Positions 839-26,017 of a stretch of 64,000 nt of DNA are shown here, piece after piece (position 1 is the first letter of the stretch; the number at the start of each line of letters is the position of its first letter). A model generated the notes under the pieces. It ran no database searches and was not told the DNA's origin. It worked only from the letters and a program-made list of their open reading frames with translations. The stretch comes from Spongospora subterranea. Its lineage: Eukaryota > Endomyxa > Phytomyxea > Plasmodiophorida > Plasmodiophoridae. The stretch lies in contig OUQQ01000006.1 in the NCBI GenBank assembly GCA_900404475.1, positions 143,134 to 207,133 on the forward strand, read 5' to 3'. A program made the translations under genes and the position numbers.

Positions 839-2612
839 ATGATGATGATGATGGGGCCCGTATGGGCCATGATCATGATCATGAACTTGACATACCGTCA
901 TAGGTTGAATTGTCGCGGATCGTGATCGCCAAGCACAACCTGAGCTCCATGATTCTGGGCAGGATATCGTCGGCAAGGTAAGCGGGCGTCATGCTCGTCG
1001 TCGACCTATCACAACGGGTGTATTTCACAGGTTTGGTGAGCGGGTTGATGACGATGGGTCCTACAGCGACGATTTTAACGCACCAGGGGATGCCGATCCC
1101 GATGATTTACCACCGCCAAGTTTCGACAGTCATGATCATTCTCCACGACCTCTCGGATCCCGTTCCAGCGAAGGAACGCCTCAATCAGCTTCGATCAACC
1201 AGAGCGCTGTGGAAACCTCTGAGAGTAAATCCCAATCGGTGGCATCAGACGGCTCCCGACGTCGGTTCTATGATTTATCACGCGGTAGGCTGGTTTCAGC
1301 CTACTTGCATATCTTGATGCTAATCACGATTACATAGCCGGCCATTCTTCCAGTAAAAAGAATCAAATTTCCAAGCTATTACGTCAGCATCAAAAGGTGC
1401 ACATCCGTTTGCATTCATTCCAGAGTATTACAGCGCCATTACAGGAAAACGCCCAACTACGCGAAGCCTTGACCAAATTACAAAGACGGGCCAGGAATGT
1501 AGCCAGCGAAAATGAGAACGTTGATCTCAGACGTCAACTTTCAGAGCAAAAAATGGAAATAAAGACTCTGAAATCGGTAGAGAGCCCCGCCAGTTTGTAT
1601 GTAAAATATAACCCAACCCAAGCCTCATGTAGGAAATTAGGCGCCACCAAAATATTCAAATGGAGTATGAGCAATCTCAATCTGAATATCCTGAAAGGAT
1701 CAGAAGTATGGCTAAAGAATTACGTCAAGTCAAGGAAAAAAACAAAGAGCTGTTGGTGCAGAATCGAGAAGGAGACCGGCAAGTTCGATCTCAACACGAT
1801 AAAATTTGTCTGGTCTGTTATTCACTTAAGAGACCGTGTCCATTTGTAATTGATACCCTCTGATCACATCTGCAGCTTCAAAAACAGAGTCAGAAAACCA
1901 ATTCGAAGAAGGGATTTGACGTTCAAGTCGAGATGGAACAAGAGAGAGAAAAATGGAGCAACGTTGAACAAGTTTTGTGAACCTTTTTTATATTACGCTC
2001 AGACGACACATACCGACACCTCAAACTTTAGGATTTGCGACGGCAGATTACTGAGCTCAAGCTGGCGATACAGACGGAACAACGGCGGAATCGGCGACTG
2101 AGCAATACAATGAAGAACCACAGGCAGCAATTAGAAGGTCAGGTGGTGGACTGCAAGCTTGACCAAATCATGACGATGTAATACTAGGCGAAATTATACG
2201 GCTCGGGAGTTTACTTAAAGAAAAAGATAAGAAGATATCGTCCAGTTCTCAGAAAATCGAGCTGATGATGCGTCAGTCATCAAATGATATCTTACAAAAT
2301 GGGATCCAACAGACCATTTTCGAGAAAGAAACTTCTTCAGAAGGTTTTGAAATCATCCACCAGATTGAGTTCGCGGATTATTTTTTCAACCCTATGTGCA
2401 GAAACCGTTTTCGAACCACCAGATAATGGTATGGTCAGATCTGCATTCCTATCGGACTCAGGTCGTGATAATTCTCTCCAAGAAATTACTGGGATATCTG
2501 CAGAGTACGATGAAGATTTTGATGAGTATGTCTAAGATAGTCTACCACTTTGTATTATATTATTCATTCATTTTCTAGGCTTGGAGTTGACGAGCTAAAA
2601 GCTCTATTGTAA
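839..2612 (+). CDS. Coiled-coil protein with many very short introns (possible ciliary protein)
   Basis: About ten small exons join in frame. Clear ones are 839-859 (five ATGs then Gly-Pro), 904-977, one from 1031 rich in Ser/Asp/Pro, and a last exon 2579-2612 after an intron with a GTATGT donor at 2526. Introns are about 27-60 nt; the junction near 1275-1310 is the one I cannot fix. After a disordered N-terminal third the protein is almost all coiled coil (QLREALTKLQRR, KELRQVKEKNKELL, DLRRQITELKLAIQ, RLGSLLKEKDKK) and ends DELGVDELKALL. The heptad pattern resembles lebercilin-type ciliary proteins, but I found no diagnostic motif, so function is unknown. The stop codon lies inside the 3' end of the convergent 5-phosphatase gene. 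Confidence 0.65.
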
Positions 2613-3668
2613 AATACACGATCCTTGACTGGGCATATTGGGATTATTTGCCCTGGCGGTCGACCAATCGCTTGTAATCATGAACGTAGCGATAACCGGC
2701 CGATGATCAGATGTTTTGACCTCGTTAACGCTGGCGTATTTTAATTGTACGATGTGTGTACTCTCTTTCCACAGTATCCGATCTGTCCATGACGGTACTC
2801 GTTGCTTCTTACTGCTGTCGTATACGTCGCTATTCTTATCGAATTTATACGATGGGAGAAATGTGATATCGCCTTCCGTAAAACCAGAGAATATATTCCC
2901 TTTTCTCATTTCCATGGTAAGCTGCTCGTTCGCCTTCATCACCTCGAGCATTTGGGATTTGATTAACGAATCGACCATGCGTCTACCCCCGTTTATTCGG
3001 TAATTCAAGTCCCCAAACCAAAATACGATGTCAAATGCCTCAGATGCCCGCCGGCCGTTTGATCCTGATAGACTCAGACCACTGTCAATCGTGTGAAAGT
3101 CGGCGTTCCTTTGCGAGACGCCATTATCGTGGGCATGAAAATGACAATTAATAAATACGAACGATAGATTCCCTAACGTGAATGATATGGCAACACCTCC
3201 TGAGATATTCGTTGTGATGAGACCATTGTATTGATGATGGACGCCACAAATACCTTTATTACCAATCACATTTCCAACTCCAGTAGCGACGGAACTGCTT
3301 GAGATATTTGACACACATTGATACAGCTCCCGCCTGATGAAGATCGCTAAATGAATTGCGTTCAATGTCACAGATTGAACAGCAACCCATTTATCACCAA
3401 GATGATGAACTAGCTTGCGCACCCATTTCGTTTTGTCATCATAAACCAGGGATACTTCTAGTGACTGGCCACATTCTTCGGTCCCGATGGCATAAACATC
3501 AAACGATTCCTTAGGAATAAATAGCGCCAAATCATCAGTAGGAGTGCAAGCATGCAAATTCCATGTTCCAATAAAGACAGTAATGGATGGGGGCTTTGGA
3601 TCCGTAGGATGATTTGTTGATTCCAACCGGTCTGTATTGGCGCCAGCTTCAGCGTCACCAGCGGGCAT
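2604..3668 (-). CDS. Inositol-polyphosphate 5-phosphatase (catalytic domain only)
   Basis: Single-exon gene, ATG at 3668, about 354 residues, roughly the size of a lone IPPc domain. It removes the 5-phosphate from phosphoinositides or soluble inositol phosphates in the cytosol or at membranes. Motifs in order are FIGTWNLHA, FINCHFHAH, FWFGDLNYR (magnesium and active-site motif), VPSWTDRILW (the family's P-x-W-x-D-R-I-L) and KTSDHRPVIATF. There are no SAC, SH2, CAAX or transmembrane parts, so it resembles a type I/II core without localisation domains. A short polar N-terminus precedes residue 30. The 3' end overlaps the convergent coiled-coil gene by 9 bp. Substrate preference cannot be read from the sequence. 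Confidence 0.93.
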   Translation of the reverse strand: MPAGDAEAGANTDRLESTNHPTDPKPPSITVFIGTWNLHACTPTDDLALFIPKESFDVYAIGTEECGQSLEVSLVYDDKTKWVRKLVHHLGDKWVAVQSVTLNAIHLAIFIRRELYQCVSNISSSSVATGVGNVIGNKGICGVHHQYNGLITTNISGGVAISFTLGNLSFVFINCHFHAHDNGVSQRNADFHTIDSGLSLSGSNGRRASEAFDIVFWFGDLNYRINGGRRMVDSLIKSQMLEVMKANEQLTMEMRKGNIFSGFTEGDITFLPSYKFDKNSDVYDSSKKQRVPSWTDRILWKESTHIVQLKYASVNEVKTSDHRPVIATFMITSDWSTARANNPNMPSQGSCILQ

Positions 3669-4363
3669 CAATAAAACAAGTCTGAGCCTTGAATAAGATG
3701 AGAAGTATGTGGCGAGATCAATAGGTATACCATTCGTTGTTATCTGGTTTTTTTCTCTCTAATTTAGGATGCCATTCATTTTTCAGTATACCATTCGGTT
3801 AAAATATAACCATTCAGTTTTAGTTAGTATATTTTCAGTTTTCTACAAGCAGCAGATAAAATTACTACTATTTCACATTAAGCCAAGGCCGCGTCGATAA
3901 ATGCCAAAAATTCCGCAAAAATCAGAAACTATTAGTAATAACGACTGTCAACATATTATACTGTTGTCGCCGTTGATGCGTTATAAACTGCAAATTTCTA
4001 AAAAAACAGGCACCAACCTGTGTTGAAATCAGGACGATGGCGGGACGCAACTCTACTGTAGATCTGCGACAGACCTTGTCCCAAAGAAACGTTGCCCCCG
4101 TAACTGCTATTGGCCCTACTCGCCGTTTTGGGCACTGGCAGTGATTGAAACATCTGAAGACTTGGTATCTTAAGCTCGATGTTACAGATGTGTGTCAGAT
4201 ATTTCCAAATTGTGAAACGCGGCCCTGTGGCAGAGTGTCGCCAGTGAGTAATGAGGTTACCCCTGCCGGGACGAAGTAACTGAATGCTGGGCCGGTCCAC
4301 ATTTGAAAACTTGGTATCAGAATATCGTTGTGATCGACTAGCTGAACTTGTCATTGGTTGCCA
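3669..4363. other. Divergent intergenic region with a possible upstream exon
   Basis: AT-rich spacer between the 5-phosphatase (-) and the zinc-finger gene (+). On the plus strand an ATG at about 4036 opens a 35-codon frame beginning MAGRNSTVDLRQ, and near 4170 another frame reads TDVCQIFPNCE. Both look codon-like and could be 5' exons of the zinc-finger gene, but I could not find a splice phase that joins them to it. Confidence 0.3.
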
Positions 4364-5658
<1,295 letters not shown>

Positions 5659-5851
5659 ATGCTTCACATCGTGTACATAACTGAACCTTCCACCGGTCTA
5701 TAATATAAGAAGTAAATATGTATCGAAACTAACCCACCGTAACGTCGAATTTCGATCCCATTCCATAGATAGGTTCAGTACAATCCCTGTCATTTATTGG
5801 CGAGAAAGTTAGCAGTTAATTATGGGTCTTCTGTCAAAAATAGTTAGTGAA
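5659..5851. other. Convergent 3' spacer
   Basis: Short AT-rich stretch between the stop codons of the zinc-finger gene and the PhoD-like gene. It must contain both poly(A) sites. No other feature is visible. Confidence 0.5.
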
Positions 5852-7753
5852 TCAGTAGAGACAATGCCACCAAAACTTTACCCTCTTAGAGTTTCTTCTG
5901 ATGCGATATATTAATGTCGTCACCATCACTGATACCGCTGTCAGTACAATGGCATTGGTTTGCCAAGCACGTATCCTGAATCCTAAATTGAACACATTTT
6001 GAGATGCTTGTGTCCACTGTGACGGCGATTTGTAAAATATTGGGATAGCTTCGTAGTTTTCTGATTGGCCGTTGACTATCAAGGCGTTGTGCCCGATATT
6101 AACAGCGTCAGGTACGAGCTCCCAGCTGCCGAGTTGCCTGGGTCCAAGAAACAAGCACATAAAGTGGAAAATACACACTTTCAGTTGGTTGGCGGCTGTA
6201 CTTGCGACAGTCACCCCGCTTGTCACAATTTGCTCGATGCAATGACGAGAAGATGTCGCGTGCGAGGTTGCTTTCTGGCAAATGCGCGACCTCAAGAAAA
6301 GATGCACGTCTCCCGCCAAGAACGTCGACTTGTTAGCAAATTTGCCAACGAGGTCTAACAAAGTAGACGTTTCCCGGCGATGGACAGAATGCGATGTTAA
6401 CTTTTCCCCTTCAACAATGTCAGCCAGAGTGGCAAACCATTTGAAAGGTGCGAACATGAACGGAACACTTGAAACGACGAACATGCGTGAAATAGAAGTA
6501 TCCTGGCCATAACGATGAATTGACGTGTTCACTCTGTGCATTTGTGCTTTTCCAAGCATCGGAGCGTTCCCATCGAAACTGAATGTTCGCTGAAAACGTG
6601 TGTCTACAAATATGAAAGCAAACGAGCTAATCACTTTGTTGAAGTCTGCACAAACTTGGCTCAATTCTGTCCCATTTTCATGAAAAACGTCTCTGTGCAG
6701 CTGGAACTGATATTCTAATAATGCTTGACGACCGGCCAAGAGTAACGGTCCACGGCCGTCTCTGAAATGTTCTGCATCAAGGTTATTTCTGATCACCACG
6801 ATTGTAAATATATGAAATGGAAGTCAAGTTTTGATGACTCTAACATAATGTCATGATCGTCTAGAAGCATCCAATTTGCTGCCGTGCTCAATAGTGTGCG
6901 CATTTCAGGAGCCGACCTAAGAACTGATTTCAGAATGCAAGATACTTGAAAAGTTGCGAAGTTATACCAAACTCTTCTATAAGCACTACGAAACTCTTCA
7001 AGCAACACTTCAAAAGGTTTCAACCGGCCACCGCGATTCCAATTGTGAAATATTGGATCCGCATAAATCTGATCACCTAAAAACAACAAAAAGATAAGTT
7101 GCGACCTATTGCATGTGAATTTTATACCAATATGCATCATTCCGATCCGTGATTGCACGTTTTCATCTTCTGAAAGTTGTTTGAGAAATGATCCGTCATG
7201 GTCGGAATCAAAGTTGTTACAACTGGCAATTCTGGTATAACAATTCTGTTAATGGGACGCAAACCACATTGAAGCAAAAATACACGATCTTAAAGCTTGA
7301 ATCACGATTGCTTGAGAGCGTAGAGAAGCTTGCACGGGAACTGATTCCATTTTTGCTAGACAAGTGTATCAGGTAGTGCTGGCCTAAAAAACATTAGACT
7401 ACTGCAAACTGTTTCAAAATGGGACCGACCTGGCTCTAGACTTGATAGAATCCAAATGCTGGGCTTCTCAGCAATGATAAGAGTCTCGCTGTATATATCT
7501 TCACCAGAGAGCGATAACACAGCCTGGACTGGCGTATGCACAAGATGCCTATGAGAATGAGGTTGACCTGGATGGATGCACACAATGCCGATTATCGACT
7601 GTACCTGTCTAGCGCATCATACATGATACGGGCATTGTTTGTGTTGACGTCGCCCACGACAATGAGAATGGGCTCCTGGAACTGTGGGATGGCACTGATT
7701 GTCAAGCAACTGATCGATATTGCTAGAAGGCGCAAAATAGAAACGACAATCAT
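5852..7753 (-). CDS. PhoD-like secreted/membrane metallophosphatase
   Basis: The gene starts with an ATG at 7753 and a hydrophobic signal peptide (VVSILRLLAISISCLTISA). Five introns of about 40-60 nt are placed by frame: near 7617-7580, 7430-7387, 7260-7222, 7125-7078 and 6845-6795. Metal-binding motifs are IASCNNFDSDHDGSF, MHIGDQIYAD (the PhoD H-x-G-D-Q) and LLDDHDIINN, the last restored only by splicing. A later SGVTVASTAANQ segment follows. The protein ends with a transmembrane helix (AIVLTAVSVMVTTLIY) and a basic tail, so it is probably a type I membrane enzyme facing the lumen or exterior. Family members are phosphodiesterases or phosphatases; the substrate is unknown. It shares its upstream region with TRM13. 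Confidence 0.85.
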
Positions 7754-14830: not shown

Positions 14831-16455
14831 ATGCGAGACCACTCGATTGGGTTTATCGTGGTTGTTGCTGTTTGTGTCCGATTATTTGTACTGGCTCTCG
14901 GTGCAATTGCCGGGTTGGTCTTCCCGCACTATGATAGATCTGGCGGATACCCTTTCGCTCATTGGTAATATTAATGAGTTTGTCGTTAACCGGGGACAGG
15001 AGTTTCCATCCCATTTTTCCGGGCCATTGTTTTATCGAAACTTATTCGCTTTGTTTTACGACAGGGATGCTGTATTCTATATTGATATAGCTAGAAAATC
15101 TTACGAATTCGAACAGCAATATGCTTTCCAGCCATTGCTTCCAATGATGCTCAGTGCGTTCGTGAAAGGTAATCAGTGCTATGGCACCGGTCTCTCTTTT
15201 TTCAATTTATCTCAGTGGTCAGGACCATTTTTCGGGCTGATGATGCGCTGGCATACCAAATTGCCGGGCTTATCATTTCCAATGGCTGTTTTGTTCTAGC
15301 GACAGTGGGCCTTTATCGGTCTGATGACATCGATCCATTTCCCGTTATGGACCTTAATTGCACTTCAGATTGGGTCAAGTTGCCACAAAAAATGAGCGAC
15401 TATCGTATCTTGGGGCCCTTGCCTTCTGCTTTACTCCGGTTAGATAGGATAGCTGCAACGGATTCCCCCGTCTCACTTTATCTGATGCAGGCTGGAATAT
15501 TTATGTCAGCGGTATACACGGAATCACTGTTCGCTTGTACCTCTTTTTGGGGACTTTATTTTCTCTATCGTACTCCCTCGTACCCATTAGTTACATCGGT
15601 ATTGTTCTCTGCTGCTGTTTCTACCCGTTCTAATGGTGTCGTCTTGGTCGGGTTTCTTCTATACAATGTTTGTTCGTGCTCTTTCGTTCGCTGATACTGC
15701 TTTGACTTTTTTTCCCCTAGACAATTCAGCAATCGCGCGAGCTTTATCGATTCAAATGTCGGATGTTGTTATTGATAGTCAAATCGATATGCTTCTCCAT
15801 CATTTGCGTCGCCCCCTTTATAACGTTTTTAGCGTTCGGCTATTCTCAGTTTTGTTATGGACCCGTTCCTCGCCCGTATTGTACATCTATGTTTCCTAAT
15901 ATCTATTCGTTCGTTCAAGCGGAATATTGGTGCGCTTTCTCTTCTATCTGAATTTTGAGCTGACCTCGTATCTTTTAGGGGTCTCGGTTTCCTAAAATAT
16001 TTCGTCGTAAAGCAAGTTCCTAATTTTCTTCTGGCAATTCCCGTTATTACTACGACAAGCTTAGCTTGCGCATCGTATATATTGAATGGAGGATATGTCC
16101 AGGTTGTTTCAGCTGGTTTGATGAAGGCTCCTCAACAATCGCAAAGCGGCGGATACTATGCAGCTGATATGACCTGCTTCGTTTATCATGCCGCCATCCT
16201 AACCGTTTTCGTCACATTGGTCGGTTTCCTCCCCCATCCCATATTCCGAATGTATCAAACGCTGACAATATGTTGCAGGTCGGCCATATCCAAATTAGCA
16301 CTCGTTTACTATTATCGTCATCGCCTCTCATATACTGGTTCATCGCCAGCTCCGCCTTTCAAAATCATCATATATGGACCATCTATCTAATCTGGTCGGC
16401 AATCTACACCTGCGTCGGAACCTGCTTATTTTCGTGTTTTCTCCCTTGGACATAG
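14831..16455 (+). CDS. GPI mannosyltransferase 2 (PIG-V/GPI18)
   Basis: Multi-pass ER membrane enzyme that adds the second mannose to the GPI anchor precursor, using dolichol-phosphate-mannose. The N-terminus is a signal-anchor-like helix ending FPHYDRSGGYP. The next exon has RDAVFYIDIARKSY and QYAFQPLLPM, matching the family's WDAVYF...YEHQ.AFFP region. Then come SLYLMQAGIFMSAVYTESLF, STRSNGVVL and FGYSQFCYGPVPRPYC with IYSFVQAEYWG. The end is HIQISTRLLLSSSP with LIYWFIAS. Introns are about 45-60 nt and the GT-AG joins keep the frame, for example near 15926-15977 and 16219-16277. Length and hydrophobic profile fit the family. Confidence 0.9.
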
Positions 16456-16747
16456 CACAATGGTTCTCAAATAAAAACAAATACTAAGCTATTGCGTTCT
16501 CACCTACGTATTCGATTAGCATTGCACCTACCTAGTTAATTAGGTTTGGACCTACCGTTGATTGGTATAGTTGGAGTGAGGGAACCATATGTAGTTCCCC
16601 CTCCCCCCCCATTGTGTGTAGTGGAGCCCATCCTGTAGAGACAAGCCGTCACGGGTTCGTCTCGTTCAATACCATATTAGCGGCTCTGTGGGCTAACGGG
16701 TGGGCAAATCTCCATCGGGCGGCATCGTAGTCAAACCCCCCCCCCCC

Positions 16748-16848
16748 NNNNNNNNNNNNNNNNNNNNNNNNNNNNNNNNNNNNNNNNNNNNNNNNNNNNN
16801 NNNNNNNNNNNNNNNNNNNNNNNNNNNNNNNNNNNNNNNNNNNNNNNN
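16748..16848. other. Assembly gap (N run)
   Basis: A block of about 100 N flanked on both sides by poly-C. Sequencing probably stopped in a long C homopolymer. The true distance is unknown. Confidence 0.98.
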
Positions 16849-17154
16849 CCCCCCCCCCCTTGATCATGCGCTAATGCCACCGACCTTCTTCGAAATCGCC
16901 TCGGTACATATCAATTGGTAGATGATTCCCAGAGATTTCGGCGCTAGATTCAGTTCGACAATTAAGTAATCCATTTCAAATTCGGTTGTCTCCCCAAGGT
17001 ATAATGTCCTGGATCATTTATTTCATTGATTTTTTCTGGTTGATTTCGGGTTCCACTGCCGTTGATAATACGACGCGACAACGACGCCAGTCCCTATCCC
17101 CCGATCGCACAACACCAATCTACCGATACGGGCACCAAGTGATGGGAGCGAGTG

Positions 17155-17462: not shown

Positions 17463-20320
17463 ATGATATTGCAGCGCTCTCATTCGGCGCCCATCCTGCA
17501 GGCCGAAATACCGAACCATGTACCGGCCAATAGGGAGTCGGCACTTGACGAGCTACTGTCGTCAGAGCGGGTCTACACGCGATCGCTATTGGCCATTCGT
17601 GATATATTCCACACACCATTATTGATCCGCTCGCTGAAGACCGAGCACCAGCTCATGGCAGCCAATGATATATCGACCGTGTTTCGCAATGTACGACAGC
17701 TGGCTGCTCTACATCAAAACCTGCTGAAAGGGGTTGAAGATAAGGCCAAGAGGTGGAGCGCAGGACAAACCTTGTACTTCAAAAGTTCTGTTCGTCGATA
17801 TGATGTTTATTTCTGTATTTTTCAGAGGGGATATATTCGCGCAATGGTCTGAAGATATGCCAGCAGCGTATATGGAGTTCTGTAGCAGTCAAGAAAAGGC
17901 TTTGAGGCGGCTTGGACGCCGCTCCGCCTCTGACACTCGTTTGCGAATGTTTCTAGCTCATGCCGTGTCGCATCCTCAATGTCAAGGTGACAGCTTGCGT
18001 TCTCTGCTGATTCTCCCATCGCAAAGGCTGTCGCGATACATCCAGATCGTGTCCCGCCTTATCGATGCCACGCCTGTTGGCCATCCGGACTATCGCCAAT
18101 TGCATGATGTCCTCATCATCTGTACTACAGCTATGGAGAATATCGCTGAACACCTTTTACAAGTCTCCGCTGCTAATCAATGGTCACGGCTTCGAAAACA
18201 GTTGAAAGGTGGTTGAACTAAATATTGAACCTCGATGTGTATCTAATTGTTTATTCAGGGCCCCTTGTCGAAAGGCTATCCCGAATGGTGTTTTCATCGG
18301 AGACAGGTGCTGATCGGCCAAGGAATTGGCTTATTCTACATTCGCAACTGCATAGCACTAGTGATGCGTTGCCATCACAACACTTGTTCCTCTTCAGGAA
18401 CAGTGTTGCTTTGTGCGAAGGCGATTTTCATTCTGGATTTCACGTGATTCAGATTATGGCTGTGGACCGACTGACTTTCCTGGAAGCGCTCCGACCAGAT
18501 GATCGCCACAACACGATATCAATGAGGCGAATTGATTCAGACAGTCATCTTTGTGTTATAGTACCCGGTAAACACAAGTGCTGACGTTCTGTAGCCCCGA
18601 AACCCCTAAAACGCTGGTACAGATAATCATGAATACTGGATATCGATGCTGTCTATGTGCATCAGTGGCAGCGATACTGAAGAGATTGACCGTTTAGGCT
18701 CAATGGTTTGTCGCTGCTGCGACTCCCGATTCAGTTTGGACGTCCGACGAATCCCTTGCGGTTATTGCGCATATTTCGTCTGTTCGTCATGTTTGCGCTC
18801 TCATGCTGACTCAAGGCTCGCTTGTGGATCTAATGATGCATTGATCGATTTGTGTCGATCGTGCTCCTCGGAAATGAAGCCTGCTTTATTAAGAACGACG
18901 TCCAACCCATGCAGTGTCGATGAAGGCGATCGTCATCGGGGCGATTCTAATCCGGTAAAAGTCCATCTACCGACTCTTACAATAGATGATGGTCGAGAGG
19001 ATGGCGAGACCACAGTTGTCAACACTCCTTCAAGTGGATCGTCAGTAGCTGGGCATTCGACCACAATGGCAAGGTTTTTCGATGGAGAGTCCGAGTTTAT
19101 CGATATTTTCTCAAAGCTGATCGCGCTCTACGTGCACCCATTGCTGACGATGTCTTCAGACACTTCATTATCCATTATGAGCCGTGATAAGATTCATATG
19201 GCGTTTGGCAATTCTTTAGCGTTACTCGCCTTTCATTCTTCTTTGCTGCGAGAATTCCAGAATTCCGCCGCCGGTGATTTTGAGTCAGTTCTCAGGAATA
19301 ACTTGGCCCAACTGAAGGTCTATCGTGGAGATGCATTCGTGGCCAACGTCGAAAGCGCGCTCTCCGTCATTGAGTCTGCTGTGAAGCGAGAAGCCAAATT
19401 ACGTCGATTCTTCAATGCATGTTTGCCGCAGTCGCCTGGAGCAAGAGCTGTGACATTATGTGATTTGTTAGAAATGCCAGCTCAGCGCCTTTCGGTAAGA
19501 TCTTGGCCTATCTGATTACCTTGGCTAACGCCAGCGGGCAGGTGTACGTGTCGCTGTTGCCCAGCGATTCTCTTACCAGATCTTCGTTGGTTTCATTATT
19601 GACATCCATCGTACTCTCCTTTGACCGGTCCGATGTCATGAGACGGACGAGATTAGCTGCAGATCAGGTCCGAAAGTTGGGCGACCCGTCCACAGCTGGA
19701 CAGTTCATAAGGAAGGGCCCGGTATGCGATATTATTGGTTTGCCATGTAACAATAATCCCCAATACCGATTTCTATCGCTGGTGTAGCTCCGAGGAAAGA
19801 AGGAGAAGCATGCTAATATTTGCTTTTTATTTACGAAAGTCATGATCATTTGCCATCCGAACAAAACGTCGGGTAAATATAACATAATCAAAAGGATGCT
19901 GATAGGAAACGACGTAATTTTCGTAAACGATTTCATCGCAAGCGTTGCAACAGTGGCAAGAAATCCCAGTCAGTTAACGCCAATTCAGGTATGCGATTTC
20001 TTCAATCAAAGTCTCACATTTCTTCTTACATTGCACAGCTTGTCAGGACCCGCAAATCCATCATCTTACATGCCCAGAATGATCGGGATCGTCTTGCATG
20101 GGTTGCAGCATTAAGAAGATGTCTAGGAAGCCCCGATCCCGTCGAGTGTAATATATCATCGGTCTGCATATGCTGCTCCAAATCTTTCACAATCGCGTTA
20201 AGGAGGAGAATATGCTGCAACTGCTGCGAATTTATATGTCAAAATTGTGCAAATATCCAGAGGGATATCTTTGATGTCGTATGTAATTTATGCATTTTGG
20301 ATAGAACATTAAATAAATAG
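17463..20320 (+). CDS. Tandem DH-PH-FYVE / DH-PH-FYVE Rho guanine-nucleotide exchange factor
   Basis: About 850 residues from eight exons. Module 1 is a DH domain (SALDELLSSERVYTRSL to LRSLLILPSQRLSRYIQIVS), a PH domain (SRMVFSSETGA, HLFLFRNSVALCEG, ending EYWISMLSM across an intron) and a FYVE-like finger (MVCRCCDSRFSLDVRRIPC, CSSC, LCRSC). After an acidic linker, module 2 repeats this: DH (ESEFIDIFSKLIAL to LCDLLEMPAQRLS, continuing VYVSLLPSDS after an intron), PH (KKEKHANICFLFTKVMI to DRLAWVAALRRCL) and a second finger (VCICCSKSFTIALRRRICC, CQNC, VCNLC). The architecture is FGD-like but duplicated. It should activate Rho/Cdc42-type GTPases at membranes. Both fingers lack the RR.HHCR pocket, so PI3P binding is doubtful. 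Confidence 0.9.
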
Positions 20321-20805: not shown

Positions 20806-22286
20806 TTAAACGCGATTTTCTGAGCATCGGAACAGCATCAGCGTATTGTCGGCTTCGATTTTGACGGCACAATTGTCTGGAATCGCCACGACAGAGCCAG
20901 TTTGCAGCCGAATGTCGGCAAGCCGCCCCGTTCCTTCAATGACGATGACGATAGATATTCCTTGAGTGGGCGCCATCGTGTAACAACCGTCATCAAGTTT
21001 CAGAGTCGTCCTTGTTAAGTAAAACTCTGAAACAGGAGCAGGAAATGCCAAGGTGCATGGGTCAATCATGTTGCCATAACTCAAATCAGGCATCTGTGTA
21101 ATCGCATAGTTGGTCTGATGTATACACAAACACTAGAGACGAGTAGTACCAGGGCACGATAAGAGAGCATACTGCATAAGGTATCGACGTCTCGGAATTT
21201 AGGAGTAAGGCCAGCACGGACGACATTGTCTGAGCAAGCCATGACTTCAACACAACTACCACATAAATATGCATGGGGCTCATTGGCATCAAGAAACATC
21301 GCACTTCCAGGAGTCATATTGATGGCATTCAGGAAAAACACACAAAATATTCCCACATCATCTGGGTATTGCTCAGCCAACCGGATTATGAGCGATTTTA
21401 GATTAATTGTGGATTTTGTTGATGGCAACTCAAAATCAATATCTGCAAAAGTTTTATGAAAAAGCATTGCATTTTGCGACGAAAATTACCTGCGATGTTC
21501 TTTAGCAATGCTTGTAACTCCTTGGCAACAGTGTCAGGCGAGCATTTCATTAAGTCTGTAAAAATAGCCTGGAGCTCCTTTTTCTGACAGTTACTTGACT
21601 CCAACGCTGAAAAAAAGTCTTTCGCACTTTGCTCCTGAATAAGTGTGCGAAGTTCTGCTTTCAATTGAGAAAATGCGAAAACCTCAACCTTAACCCGACA
21701 TACGTGGAACTGTTTTCAAAAAATGGGCAATCTCCGGTAACGGGCGAAAGCCACATAGTGCCTCGAATGGCGTCAACGCGACCGCCATCTCTGGTTTATG
21801 GTTGTCATCAGCATATTCCTATCACAACTGAGGTGGCACGATGAACATCAACACGTAAAATGTACTTTAGGCATCTTTGCATGAAGAACTTTAGCGAGTG
21901 CCTTATTTGGGTGCGCTTGTATAGACAACGCTTTATCAACTGAAAGAACCTGGGCAAAACACTGTTAATAGTTCGGATGACGGTTTTGCGAAAATCAAAC
22001 CTTAAAAAGAAAAGGAATATCTTGTCCACCGATGGCCTCCTTTAATGGAATGGAAGTTCGCCGGATAGTTGAAGGACCATTCACATGTGTTCCCATCCAC
22101 AATTCAGCATACCGCAAGCTAGAGTCTACGGGATGGCGGGACGAATGCAGTAGCGCCACCATGGAATCATCGCCAAACTTCCCCCATGCGTAGTTCTGCA
22201 CGCGGCAATCGAGTTCCGACGGCTCCTATAACGGTAATCACTAGCTATTTGAGGATGGCGACAAATTCCCTGACCGTTAATGTCAT
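20806..22286 (-). CDS. Mannose-6-phosphate isomerase
   Basis: Cytosolic zinc enzyme that interconverts fructose-6-P and mannose-6-P, feeding GDP-mannose for N-glycans, GPI anchors and wall mannan. A tiny first exon (ATG 22286, M-T-L-T) joins [10 protein letters not shown]. The series continues [73 protein letters not shown] and [16 protein letters not shown], ending with a C-terminal cupin part ([15 protein letters not shown]). The zinc ligands Q/H in QAHPNK, E in NHKPEMA and H in EPHAY are present. Introns of about 45-60 nt are needed near 22270-22230, 22010-21960, 21870-21820 and 21700-21660. Length is normal for the family. Confidence 0.93.
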
Positions 22287-22790: not shown

Positions 22791-25172
22791 TTATATATTC
22801 GTCTTTTCTTTCGTTCTACTCTTATTGCTTTTCTCTGGACCGGTGTCGCAATCTGACAGTGCAAGCTTCCTGTCGTTTTTGTCAACATTCACTCCTTGAA
22901 GATCGGAACTGGTATTTTTGCCCTTGGACGAATGCGTGCAACGCCTTATGGCATTGTAAAGTAGCATGTACAACGATAAGAGTATAGATTTCAGCGCCTT
23001 ATATGTTGCAGACAGCAACAACAACGCGCCTGATGCGCTAAAGCACAGGTGCAACGTCTGAATGTCAATATAAAAAACACAGAGTGCCCCTATTGAATTC
23101 GCTGTTAACCACGTAGCCGCATACACCATTCGAGAATGCTCGGCCATGGTGCCAATGGAATAAGGTACCGCAATTAGATATCTTCCTGGAAAAGATAGCA
23201 GTTCATGCGGCAAAGTCATGATGCAATAAATCCGACCCCCCATGATTGCTGCAATAACACAGATTATAATCGATACAGTTAAGCAAGCAATCCAAATTAA
23301 ATCGCCACTTTCCTGAGTGAATGTAAAGATATCCCCAGATTCGAGCAATGTGCTGATAGGTGCAATCAAGTCACCGCGACCGAGAATGTAATGGATTATA
23401 AGGACCGAAACAACGGTTGGGGTGATCAACATGGTGGCCAGTAAACACGATTTTCCAAATGAAAAACGAGAAGGCGATATAACGAGAGGTACTTGCATTC
23501 CACAAAGAGAAAGGAATATAACTTGAAAGAGAAAAATGTCAAGTTGCGATCTAGAAATCGTCGCCACGCGGATACATGCAGCAAACACGGTGAGGTTGAA
23601 CATCCAGAGTAAACTTTCAATAGTTAGCATGACCAGGATAACAAGCTCGTCAGGAGCAAAATGCCTCCATCGAGAGTATATGCTCGCCCATTGCCGGGCC
23701 TTAGCATTTCTTTCACTCGAGAGCACCTCTTCTGCGCTTCGCGGATTTTGGAGTGCGGTAGCCACTTCATTCACACATGATGTTCGCCAAAAACACGGCG
23801 ACTGACGAACGACTCTTACAATAGCTAGTTTGGAATAATGTGGACGAATATGTTTACGGCAACCGGAATCGACCAATTCATCAGCAACGCCGTACCCAAA
23901 AATATGTGAACCGGTCATCGGCGTTGTCATCAGTGACCCGCTGACAGATATTGGGCAGGTGGGTGACACTGCAGCATCTAAACTGCTATTGAACTGCAAG
24001 GCTGATATTAAACGAATGAGGACATCCTTGTGAACAAGGGTTCCATTTGGGACAGAAATAACAAAATTGGGGCAGAGTCGTTTGGTCAGCATGTCCAATG
24101 GATCCACTTGACAGTGCGGAGAAGAACGTACGAAAACAAACGTTTGCAGGATATCGGTTGATCCGGTGTAGTCTGTTCGTTCAAATATATGAGCTAGGGC
24201 GTTAGGTTTGATGTCGAAACATTTAGGACGGAGCATTCCTAAGGCGTCCAACAGCCATACTGCTTCAGGAGGTGGCAGATTCTCAAACTTAATGAGCAGA
24301 ATGAAGTTATCCAAGCTCAAAGACAGAAAGTTTTCGCCCACAAGAGAACTCAAAGACTTTGAAAGTTTCTCCAACGTTTTCTTCATCCAATTTGCCGGTT
24401 CATCACTTACAGTCAGTGTAAGAACTATTTGAATTGGCTTCTCATTCAGCAAACATTGAGGAATAAAGTTCAGAAAGATATTCTCCGCGCAATCACTGTC
24501 AATTCTCGTATGATGTAAGAGCGATTTCGTCTTGTCATCTTGGATCTTCGTTGTTACACTTAAAATATCCTTAACCTCCATTCTTGCTTGGAGTACATTA
24601 CCGCCAGACCATACACCGAGATCATCATTGAACGACGCATTGCGGAAGTCGGGAGGGTCTGGCTTTTTCGGAGAATCGTGCGTTTTTGGAGGCTCTTCCA
24701 CCTGGATAGCGATGTCTCTACTAATCCTTTCTGTAAACGCGGTTTTTGGGTCGACTTTCACTAATGAAGTAGCAGGGCCCCTCTTGATAACTGGACTCTC
24801 AGAGAATACTTCTGTTGGCGGCAAGTTTGGCAGGACATCGACCTTATAGCGGACCCTAGCGTGTTGCTTTTGCTCCAAACTGCCACCAATATAAGGAGGC
24901 ATTCTTGAGGTAAAAGCAGCTGTCGATGATGATGTCCAATTCGCTTTCTCTAATCGTGATGCAACCGCAGCCATATCGGTACGTAAAATTGTTGAGGGCA
25001 TCTTCGTTCCAGTCCTGTTTCTTGCGTCTAACAAACCCTGACTATTTTGAGTGGAAAAGAGTGAGTTGTCCTCAATGGTTGATGGCAGGCTCCGAGCCGA
25101 TACCGCCCTGGGCTGTGAGCGAGACCGATGCTGCTGCGGCCGATGATGCCGCGAATTTCGCGGGGACGACAT
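22791..25172 (-). CDS. Unidentified multi-pass membrane protein, 793 residues
   Basis: One uninterrupted reading frame from the ATG at 25172. Residues 1-180 are polar and basic/Ser/Pro-rich. Residues about 220-480 form a soluble domain (PIQIVLTLTVSDEPANW, LCPNFVISVPNGTL, KLAIVRVVRQS). From about 500 there are six or seven membrane helices (LVILVMLTIESLLWMFNL, FLFQVIFLSLCGMQVPLVI, LIWIACLTVSIIICVIAAI), then a basic, Lys-rich cytosolic tail. The order (cytosolic domain, then a helix cluster with YLIAVPYSIGTM) recalls chitin synthases. The region RQWASIYSRWRHF sits where QRRRW would be, but no ED or EDR catalytic motif is visible. I leave the function open. Lack of introns over 2.4 kb is unusual here. 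Confidence 0.8.
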   Translation of the reverse strand: MSSPRNSRHHRPQQHRSRSQPRAVSARSLPSTIEDNSLFSTQNSQGLLDARNRTGTKMPSTILRTDMAAVASRLEKANWTSSSTAAFTSRMPPYIGGSLEQKQHARVRYKVDVLPNLPPTEVFSESPVIKRGPATSLVKVDPKTAFTERISRDIAIQVEEPPKTHDSPKKPDPPDFRNASFNDDLGVWSGGNVLQARMEVKDILSVTTKIQDDKTKSLLHHTRIDSDCAENIFLNFIPQCLLNEKPIQIVLTLTVSDEPANWMKKTLEKLSKSLSSLVGENFLSLSLDNFILLIKFENLPPPEAVWLLDALGMLRPKCFDIKPNALAHIFERTDYTGSTDILQTFVFVRSSPHCQVDPLDMLTKRLCPNFVISVPNGTLVHKDVLIRLISALQFNSSLDAAVSPTCPISVSGSLMTTPMTGSHIFGYGVADELVDSGCRKHIRPHYSKLAIVRVVRQSPCFWRTSCVNEVATALQNPRSAEEVLSSERNAKARQWASIYSRWRHFAPDELVILVMLTIESLLWMFNLTVFAACIRVATISRSQLDIFLFQVIFLSLCGMQVPLVISPSRFSFGKSCLLATMLITPTVVSVLIIHYILGRGDLIAPISTLLESGDIFTFTQESGDLIWIACLTVSIIICVIAAIMGGRIYCIMTLPHELLSFPGRYLIAVPYSIGTMAEHSRMVYAATWLTANSIGALCVFYIDIQTLHLCFSASGALLLLSATYKALKSILLSLYMLLYNAIRRCTHSSKGKNTSSDLQGVNVDKNDRKLALSDCDTGPEKSNKSRTKEKTNI

Positions 25173-26017
25173 GCGAGTATCAATGGTTTAGCAGTAATTT
25201 TATACTATGAAGGCTGCTCGCTGTGATTGGAGATTTGAGAACGGGGAAAACCGGTGAAACATAGTACACCAGGTGGATTGCTGAGTAAGGCCGGTATGGG
25301 TCGGGGGCACTCGAAACTACTTGGCTTCGCTAGTTGCAGGGGCTACGCAACCACTTCCTGATCACTGCATCTGGCTGGGCGGACACGCTCAATGAGTTCA
25401 GCTGTGGAAGAGGGAAGGGACACACCAGTTGACAACAATTTCTTCACTGTTGTAGCCGTCAAGTGGGATTTTTTTTTGACCCCCTTTATCACCGTCAGGG
25501 CGGACACATAACGCTTCGCATTGTCCTTCGACCGTTCATTGATTGCAATTCGGATTGGTTCTGAACGGACTTCGATCCGCTAGAGAGTCAACCGGGCTCG
25601 GTCCTCGGGCGCCACATGTTGATGGCTCGCCATATCAGCGGTTATGAAGACGATACAGAAGTCCAGAACACCCGGTACGTATCTGAATAACTCACCGAGC
25701 TGCTGAGATTAATCGGCCATTATGAAAACGCAGGCTCCAGCAGAATTGGTGTTGGGATAATTTCAGATAAACATTCAGCAACTGTCATCATGCCCGGCAG
25801 GATGCCAAACTCTGTCGATTGGTCAACTCCGTTTCGCAACAGGTTGATAAAGTTGGAGCATCTTATCGAGAATCGTCAGTTTTCAATCGACTATTTCATC
25901 TCTTCTCTGCAAGCCACCGACAACCCAACCGTTGGCGTCAGGGTTCAGGTGAAACCATTGAGTCTTAAGCACAAACACATCTGGCCATAATGACCTTAAG
26001 ACTATCAGGTGAAATAT
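25173..26017. other. Intergenic region, no confident gene
   Basis: About 850 bp. A 66-codon frame at 25790-25990 (ATG; RLIKLEHLIENRQFS) reads like protein but matches nothing and lacks supporting structure. The rest has stops in all frames and no clear repeat. Confidence 0.4.

What the first reader, a model, noticed from the sequence alone, without database searches (positions are those of the whole stretch)
17463..20320. Rho-GEF with two complete DH-PH-FYVE modules in one chain
Seen: two DH domains (LPSQRLSRY and MPAQRLS regions), two PH-like ends with a Trp helix, and two Cys-rich fingers, in the order DH-PH-finger-DH-PH-finger, linked by phase-consistent introns. FGD-family GEFs normally have one DH-PH-FYVE (some with a second PH). 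A duplicated module could act on two GTPases or bridge two membranes. I do not know of a described protein with this order.
Basis: partly seen in the sequence, partly recalled or inferred. Interest (0 to 1): 0.75.

Follow-up and report, generated by a model that had tools for sequence, protein, structure and literature searches.

The report
Double FGD-like RhoGEF of powdery-scab parasite
A potato-parasite gene makes one protein carrying two copies of a cell-skeleton switch-activating unit; the layout is real and is shared with water moulds, but the second copy looks as if it has lost its switching chemistry.

Summary
17463-20320 is one seven-exon gene encoding 845 residues in the order DH-PH-FYVE-DH-PH-FYVE. 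The spliced model matches a Spongospora subterranea protein (UniRef A0A0H5R4N3, P0001) at 844 of 845 residues. FYVE1 and DH2 lie in one stop-free exon. That record is very probably transcript-derived, though its provenance was not read directly. Both halves score as RhoGEF. The organism is a plasmodiophorid (Rhizaria), not a chytrid.

The order is not unique: 25 of 140 proteins held have it and 7 more have DH-PH-FYVE-DH without a detected second finger; the named ones besides Spongospora's are oomycetes. The genome holds two further DH-PH-FYVE-DH-PH loci.

The copies are asymmetric. Over four GTPase-contact positions DH1 is complete in 29 of 30 proteins, DH2 in 0 of 28 that can be judged. Best reading: an FGD-like RhoGEF whose first module exchanges nucleotide and whose second is a pseudo-GEF with a regulatory or docking role. 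The window protein is a worn member: DH1 lost the Asn and both fingers lost the R+HHC histidines. One duplication or several: unresolved.

The parts
17463..20320 (+). Whole coding sequence: 7 exons, 845 aa, DH-PH-FYVE-DH-PH-FYVE
   Evidence: Spliced model identical to UniRef A0A0H5R4N3 (P0001) at 844 of 845 residues
17541..18147 (+). DH1 (exons 1-2, residues 27-211)
   Evidence: RhoGEF E 5.7e-48 whole protein, best stretch 28-208; keeps E, Q, R; Asn1421-equivalent is Ala
18327..18669 (+). PH1 (exon 3 to start of exon 4, residues about 255-350)
   Evidence: Weak by sequence (5 bits); strands 258-332 plus C-terminal helix 337-350 in the model
18682..18879 (+). FYVE-like finger 1 (residues 355-420): four CxxC pairs, RRIPC instead of RRHHC
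   Evidence: Pfam FYVE below cut-off; 60 bits with a local profile that contains it; sequence
18880..19053 (+). Linker between the modules, inside exon 4, no stop codon
   Evidence: Exon 4 open in one forward frame only; pLDDT under 50 at 423-478
19054..19679 (+). DH2 (exons 4-5, residues about 479-671); keeps the Glu, has QRLSVY in place of QRxxRY, shortened after that helix
   Evidence: RhoGEF 45.9 bits, E 9.7e-12 for the second half alone; genome search 42.3 bits
19692..20125 (+). PH2 (exons 5-7, residues about 676-781)
   Evidence: SOS1/NGEF-like PH 28.4 bits, above its cut-off of 27.7; strands 680-764 and helix 767-781 in the model
20141..20308 (+). FYVE-like finger 2 (residues 787-842): four CxxC pairs, RRRIC instead of RRHHC
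   Evidence: 11 bits; sequence; a hairpin and helices in the model
17774..17825 (+). Intron 1 (GTACTT...TTTCAG)
18209..18258 (+). Intron 2
18568..18622 (+). Intron 3
19495..19541 (+). Intron 4, inside DH2 at QRLS/VYV
19722..19787 (+). Intron 5
19989..20038 (+). Intron 6

Best explanation
It is a Dbl-family Rho guanine-nucleotide exchange factor of the FGD kind with a duplicated DH-PH-FYVE module, one of a set of proteins with this layout found in a plasmodiophorid and in oomycetes. Shown by sequence: one open chain, two DH-PH-FYVE-like units, the same order in other species, and unequal conservation of the two DH domains. Inferred: the first DH-PH loads GTP onto a Rac/Cdc42-like GTPase; the PH domains and fingers place the protein on a membrane; the second DH-PH-finger is a pseudo-GEF half that keeps the DH fold and the switch-I Glu but not the full exchange site, and acts by docking, dimerising or restraining the first module. 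In this particular paralogue the Asn-to-Ala change in DH1 and the loss of the R+HHC histidines in both fingers suggest reduced exchange activity and little or no PI3P binding, so it may act mainly as a scaffold or as a slow, specialised GEF. A likely setting is actin control in the amoeboid or plasmodial stages, since phagocytosis is reported to underpin the Phytomyxea lifestyle (PMC10953367; title, abstract start and passages seen).
For: RhoGEF in both halves. Same order in 25 of 140 proteins held, 7 more with DH-PH-FYVE-DH but no detected second finger. At the E1244/Q1380/R1384/N1421 equivalents DH1 is complete in 29 of 30 proteins, DH2 in 0 of 30 rows, of which 2 are fragments that end before these positions, so 0 of 28; single-DH proteins with FYVE 13 of 15 after two misfiled family rows are taken out of the printed 14 of 17. 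Model with DH, PH and finger-like folds in both halves, mean pLDDT 70.8, DH1 blocks 81-95; Foldseek's best hits are DH/PH structures, E 8e-13.
Against: Residue loss is not loss of function: in the same count only 60 of 89 other single-DH proteins are complete, 25 of the 29 misses having Gln at R1384; these are mainly fish entries named Rho guanine nucleotide exchange factor 10-like, and I recall ARHGEF10 to be an active GEF. So loss of the Arg alone, which is all that P0003's DH2 shows, proves little. The 30 double proteins are not independent: most are oomycete-type orthologues. Two further DH2 rows had an alignment gap at the Glu and the window's own DH2 at the Asn (D). DH2 blocks of the model lie at 52-81 and PH2 at 52-88 pLDDT. 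The window DH1 scored slightly better with a single-FGD profile (96.9 bits) than with the DH1 profile of the double proteins (91.3), and its DH2 better with the copy-1 (37.4) than the copy-2 profile (19.0), so its membership in the family rests on layout more than on domain phylogeny. I found no biochemical data for any member in my literature listings.
Confidence: 0.6

Rival explanations
1. Bifunctional GEF: both DH-PH modules are catalytic and activate two different GTPases, as the first reader suggested and as in Trio and Kalirin (recalled).
For: DH2 keeps the switch-I Glu in 28 of 30 rows, the other two being gaps, and in 16 of 16 of a smaller alignment; DH2 of most oomycete-type members keeps the RY motif; Dbl proteins with two DH-PH cassettes are known (PMC8305018, passages seen).
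Against: No DH2 of the 28 that can be judged has the full residue set against 29 of 30 DH1. Oomycete-type DH2 has Q to E and N to E/Q/R; the others lose the Arg. Window DH2 is also shortened after the conserved helix.
Confidence: 0.2
2. The window gene is a decaying paralogue without function; better-kept paralogues on C319 and C260 carry the family role.
For: It is the most divergent member looked at: DH1 Asn lost, PH1 5 bits, both fingers lack the histidines, long branches in both trees.
Against: All seven exons are open, splice sites are intact and all 16 finger cysteines are kept; a public entry, very probably from RNA, matches it end to end.
Confidence: 0.15
3. Two adjacent genes wrongly joined into one model.
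For: None found.
Against: FYVE1 and DH2 sit in one stop-free exon; P0001 covers both halves; the same order occurs in other species; at C260 the end of FYVE1 and the start of DH2 again share one open frame (by eye).
Confidence: 0.03

Closest known systems
Oomycete proteins deposited as hypothetical or 'FYVE, RhoGEF and PH domain-containing protein' (Aphanomyces, Pythium, Lagenidium, Phytophthora, Peronospora, Bremia, Hyaloperonospora)
   Same: Same order DH-PH-FYVE-DH-PH-(PH)-FYVE and the same asymmetry, DH1 complete and DH2 incomplete
   Different: Longer (1231-2162 aa), most with insertions in DH2, R+HHC fingers in those listed; the window protein is short and its fingers lack the histidines
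FGD1-FGD6 / frabin family
   Same: DH-PH-FYVE module; atypical FYVE fingers occur there too (frabin and FGD1 lack WxxD, PMC3865658, passages seen)
   Different: FGDs have one DH and a second PH after the finger; the window protein has no such PH and a whole second module
Trio / Kalirin (recalled)
   Same: Two DH-PH cassettes in one chain
   Different: No FYVE fingers; kinase, spectrin and SH3 regions instead; both cassettes catalytic (recalled)
Entamoeba FYVE-family GEFs such as EhFP10 (PMC6396940, passages seen)
   Same: Protist RhoGEF with DH plus FYVE, linked to phagocytosis and pinocytosis
   Different: Single DH and single FYVE, no second module

Membership tests
Dbl-family RhoGEF | DH domain scoring above the RhoGEF cut-off | tested here: met
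   163.9 bits whole protein, two stretches; second half alone 45.9 bits, cut-off 27.6
Dbl-family RhoGEF | PH domain directly after DH | tested here: met
   PH2 28.4 bits, cut-off 27.7; PH1 only 5 bits by a local profile but PH-like strands and helix in the model
Dbl-family RhoGEF | GEF activity | not testable with these tools
   No assay; contact residues only
FGD/frabin family | Order DH-PH-FYVE-PH with one DH | tested here: not met
   Order is DH-PH-FYVE-DH-PH-FYVE; no PH directly after FYVE1
FYVE zinc finger | Eight Cys in four CxxC pairs | tested here: met
   Both fingers, by eye
FYVE zinc finger | PI3P motifs WxxD, R(R/K)HHCR, RVC | tested here: not met
   RRIPC and RRRIC in place of RRHHC, no WxxD (motifs as in PMC3865658); Pfam FYVE 24.3 bits, below 27.8
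Double-module FGD-like layout (this report) | DH-PH-FYVE followed by a second DH, with or without PH and FYVE | tested here: met
   32 of 140 proteins held, P0001 and C319 included; C260 by exon-level matches
Double-module FGD-like layout (this report) | Single common origin of the two modules in all members | tested here: inconclusive
   AU p 0.102 for one origin, 0.84 for an oomycete-own duplication, neither rejected; 10 double and 9 single proteins used

The most novel reading that the evidence does not exclude
Plasmodiophorids and oomycetes keep an undescribed class of double FGD-like proteins in which a catalytic DH-PH-FYVE is permanently fused to a pseudo-GEF copy of itself: a DH fold that holds a Rho-family GTPase through the switch-I Glu without releasing its nucleotide, so that it senses or stores the GTPase and gates the first module at a phosphoinositide membrane.
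Probability: 0.3. Interest if true: 0.6.

Novelty: new variant of a known kind. Interest (0 to 1): 0.4.

Why it matters
Pseudo-enzymes are well studied among kinases but, as far as I recall, much less so among Rho exchange factors. Proteins that fuse an apparently competent and an apparently incompetent DH-PH-FYVE unit in one chain, kept in many oomycetes and at three loci of a plasmodiophorid, are a natural system for asking what a non-exchanging DH domain does. Both groups include major crop parasites whose Rho signalling is little known, so the family is also a handle on their actin and endomembrane control. The window gene alone is an ordinary, rather worn member.

Tried and rejected
Rejected: chytrid origin (one search gives Spongospora). 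Rejected: two adjacent genes. Rejected: unique architecture. Led nowhere: dating the duplication. The DH tree and the concatenated module tree disagree or are weakly supported. Leave-lineage-out profiles (10 double proteins) put DH1 with copy 1 rather than copy 2 in 10 of 10, but DH2 with copy 2 in only 3 of 10; PH and FYVE profiles did not separate the copies. The constraint tests reject none of the six alternatives by AU, with a warning of too few replicates; by bp-RELL in the same table the single-origin tree falls outside the 95% set. Led nowhere: ribosomal RNA typing of the assembly (not completed). Not settled: whether Plasmodiophora brassicae has a double-module gene; the only hit named P. 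brassicae (P0017) is a single-DH protein, and each protein search scores only about 8000 candidates sharing most words. P0001, P0002 and P0005, though rows of the A1 query, were not among the 120 hits listed (of 137), so that search is incomplete. C319 is richer in GC (57-59% over its core 3 kb) than the window (46%) and no near-identical protein appears, so its being Spongospora rather than a contaminant is likely but unproved. Corrected on checking: of the 30 DH2 rows, P0044 and P0045 are fragments that cannot be judged, and the printed single-FYVE group held two misfiled family rows (P0043's DH2 and P0046's DH1).

Full report
What is there. The coding sequence runs from the ATG at 17463 to the TAG ending at 20320 in seven exons. 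A first hand-made splice model gave 838 residues. A search of about 5.8 billion proteins returned one hit at E 0.001 among 7995 candidates scored, P0001, the UniRef entry A0A0H5R4N3 of Spongospora subterranea, 845 aa. Apart from one residue it differed from my model only by a donor 21 nt further on in intron 1; with that donor the model equals P0001 at 844 of 845 residues, S472C being the one change. The organism is therefore a plasmodiophorid, in Rhizaria, not a chytrid.

One transcript. P0001 is listed by UniRef, EukProt and metaclust. I recall that accession numbers of the A0A0H5 series date from 2015, so the entry very probably stems from RNA. I did not see the nucleotide record itself. 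Independently, exon 4 is open from the end of PH1 through FYVE1 into DH2, while the other two forward frames carry 15 and 17 stops.

Domains. Pfam finds RhoGEF twice, PH2, and FYVE below its cut-off. The second half alone gives RhoGEF 45.9 bits, E 9.7e-12. Local profiles find all six domains in order, PH1 (5 bits) and FYVE2 (11 bits) only weakly; those profiles include domains of P0001 itself, so its own scores are inflated. The AlphaFold model (20-row alignment, mean pLDDT 70.8, pTM 0.44) shows, twice, a helical bundle, a seven-strand PH-like unit with a helix, and a finger-like end. Foldseek's best PDB hits are DH/PH crystal structures such as 1xcg and 3p6a; the whole-chain search does not test the second half apart.

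Not unique. A search with the C319 paralogue (26 proteins) and with a seven-row profile (137 proteins, 120 listed) brought the proteins held to 139; with C319, 140. Of these 140, 25 have DH-PH-FYVE then DH-PH-FYVE; 7 more have DH-PH-FYVE-DH with or without PH2 and no detected second finger (several are fragments); 3 have two DH in another pattern, one of them (P0041, Hyaloperonospora brassicae) with only its first finger undetected; and 105 fall in the rest. My pattern rule merges neighbouring DH stretches, so the rest includes a few proteins with two DH stretches and no finger between (P0013, P0068, P0077, P0098). Of the 25, one is P0001, 19 are named entries of genera that I recall to be oomycetes, and 5 are unnamed; P0043 among them has a truncated DH1. 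The own genome also holds C319, with DH-PH-FYVE-(short presumed intron)-DH-PH, and C260, with DH-PH-FYVE-DH-PH where the end of FYVE1 and the start of DH2 again share one open frame (its best DH2 exon has only 20.1 bits against Pfam RhoGEF, below cut-off). C387 carries a single DH-PH-FYVE.

Asymmetry. I used four GTPase-contact positions of intersectin (E1244, Q1380, R1384, N1421: numbers and role recalled; the motif spacing in the intersectin chain printed fits them). In an alignment of 16 of the 32 double proteins all 16 DH1 keep E, Q and R and 15 keep N or D, the exception being the window protein (Ala); all 16 DH2 keep E, and none keeps Q, R/K and N/D together. In the larger automatic count, which kept 30 of the 32, DH1 is complete in 29 of 30 and DH2 in 0 of 30. 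On checking two of those DH2 rows are fragments, so the fair figure is 0 of 28; the single-DH group with FYVE, printed as 14 of 17, held two misfiled family rows and is 13 of 15. Other single-DH proteins are complete in 60 of 89, 25 of the 29 misses being Gln at R1384, mainly fish entries of the ARHGEF10-like kind. So the Arg alone is not decisive; the consistent failure of DH2 is. The lineages differ in how DH2 fails: oomycete-type members have Q to E and N to E/Q/R while mostly keeping the Arg; Spongospora (window, C319, C260) and P0002, P0003, P0007, P0047 lose the Arg. Seven of 20 investigated human Dbl proteins showed no GEF activity (PMC8305018, passages seen), so inactive DH domains are not without precedent.

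Fingers. Both window fingers keep four CxxC pairs but have RRIPC and RRRIC where PI3P-binding fingers have RRHHC; C319 and the oomycete-type members listed keep RRHHC or a close form, and P0003 and P0007 deviate in part. The motif set is given in PMC3865658 (passages seen), which also says that frabin and FGD1 lack WxxD yet the FGD1 finger recognises PI3P and PI5P. So a missing WxxD is tolerable; missing histidines in both fingers make PI3P binding of the window protein doubtful.

History. The domain tree groups second DH domains of C319, P0002, P0047, P0003 and P0007 (UFBoot 95) and holds the family's DHs, that of C260 included, together apart from the others (94), but places both DHs of P0001 outside on long branches (14 of the double proteins used). 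In the concatenated tree the oomycete modules pair with each other (UFBoot 25) and P0001's two modules pair with each other across a midpoint root. Constraint tests reject neither one origin (AU p 0.102) nor lineage-own duplications. Profile tests are mixed and for P0001 unfavourable. I therefore leave open whether the layout arose once or repeatedly, and whether P0001 descends from the same double ancestor.

Mechanism. Shown: chain, order, residue states. Established for the relatives: DH-PH catalyses exchange, and FGDs couple membranes to actin through Cdc42 (PMC3865658). Inferred: DH1-PH1 as the working half, DH2-PH2-finger as a docking or gating half. For the window paralogue I expect weak exchange and little PI3P binding. 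A role in phagotrophic actin control is a guess from the lifestyle (PMC10953367, title, abstract start and passages seen; a search of its text found no 'Rho', 'Rac', 'GEF' or 'FYVE').

Literature. Searches were made for the architecture and its parts; their listings, mostly the top 10-20 of more, showed no paper on a DH-PH-FYVE-DH-PH-FYVE protein. P. sojae is reported to have 272 FYVE proteins (PMC8233823, passages seen), and FYVE-RhoGEF co-occurrence across eukaryotes is reported (PMC2837644, passages seen); the passages shown did not mention a doubled module, and supplements could not be searched here.

Verdict. A true observation, sound in its anatomy, wrong in its host and its uniqueness. 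The new point is the imbalance between the two DH domains in a layout shared by a plasmodiophorid and oomycetes.

Noticed in passing
L040 (G000:C260:800-7800), minus strand, positions 1465-4743 along that strand: A further DH-PH-FYVE-DH-PH locus of the same genome; FYVE1 end and DH2 start share one open frame; DH2 motif PVQRIPVY; no second finger seen.
   Followed up: partly
L021 (G000:C319:7500-16500) 2685-6109: A further DH-PH-FYVE-DH-PH locus, GC-rich (57-59% over its core), with a WW-like stretch before DH1 (by eye); no near-identical public protein.
   Followed up: partly
L042 (G000:C585:20500-26500), minus strand: Sec7 (Arf-GEF) exons followed by a PH and a split FYVE-like finger, possibly one Sec7-PH-FYVE gene.
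   Followed up: partly
L043 (G000:C442:23500-31000), minus strand, positions 2841-4573 along that strand: FYVE, a very weak DH-like stretch, a weak PH, then two more FYVE fingers in a row: perhaps another worn multi-module relative.
   Followed up: partly
window 22791-25187 (-): 798-aa open frame with no Pfam match at E 0.01; looks rich in membrane segments by eye.
   Followed up: partly
window 21081-22225 (-): Phosphomannose isomerase type I pieces (21081-21485 and 21995-22225 tested) just downstream of the RhoGEF.
   Followed up: partly
window 15959-16390 (+): PIG-V mannosyltransferase piece upstream; neighbouring open frames probably belong to it.
   Followed up: partly
window 16740-16860: Run of N flanked by poly-C on both sides, an assembly gap at a C homopolymer about 600 bases upstream of the gene.
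   Followed up: no
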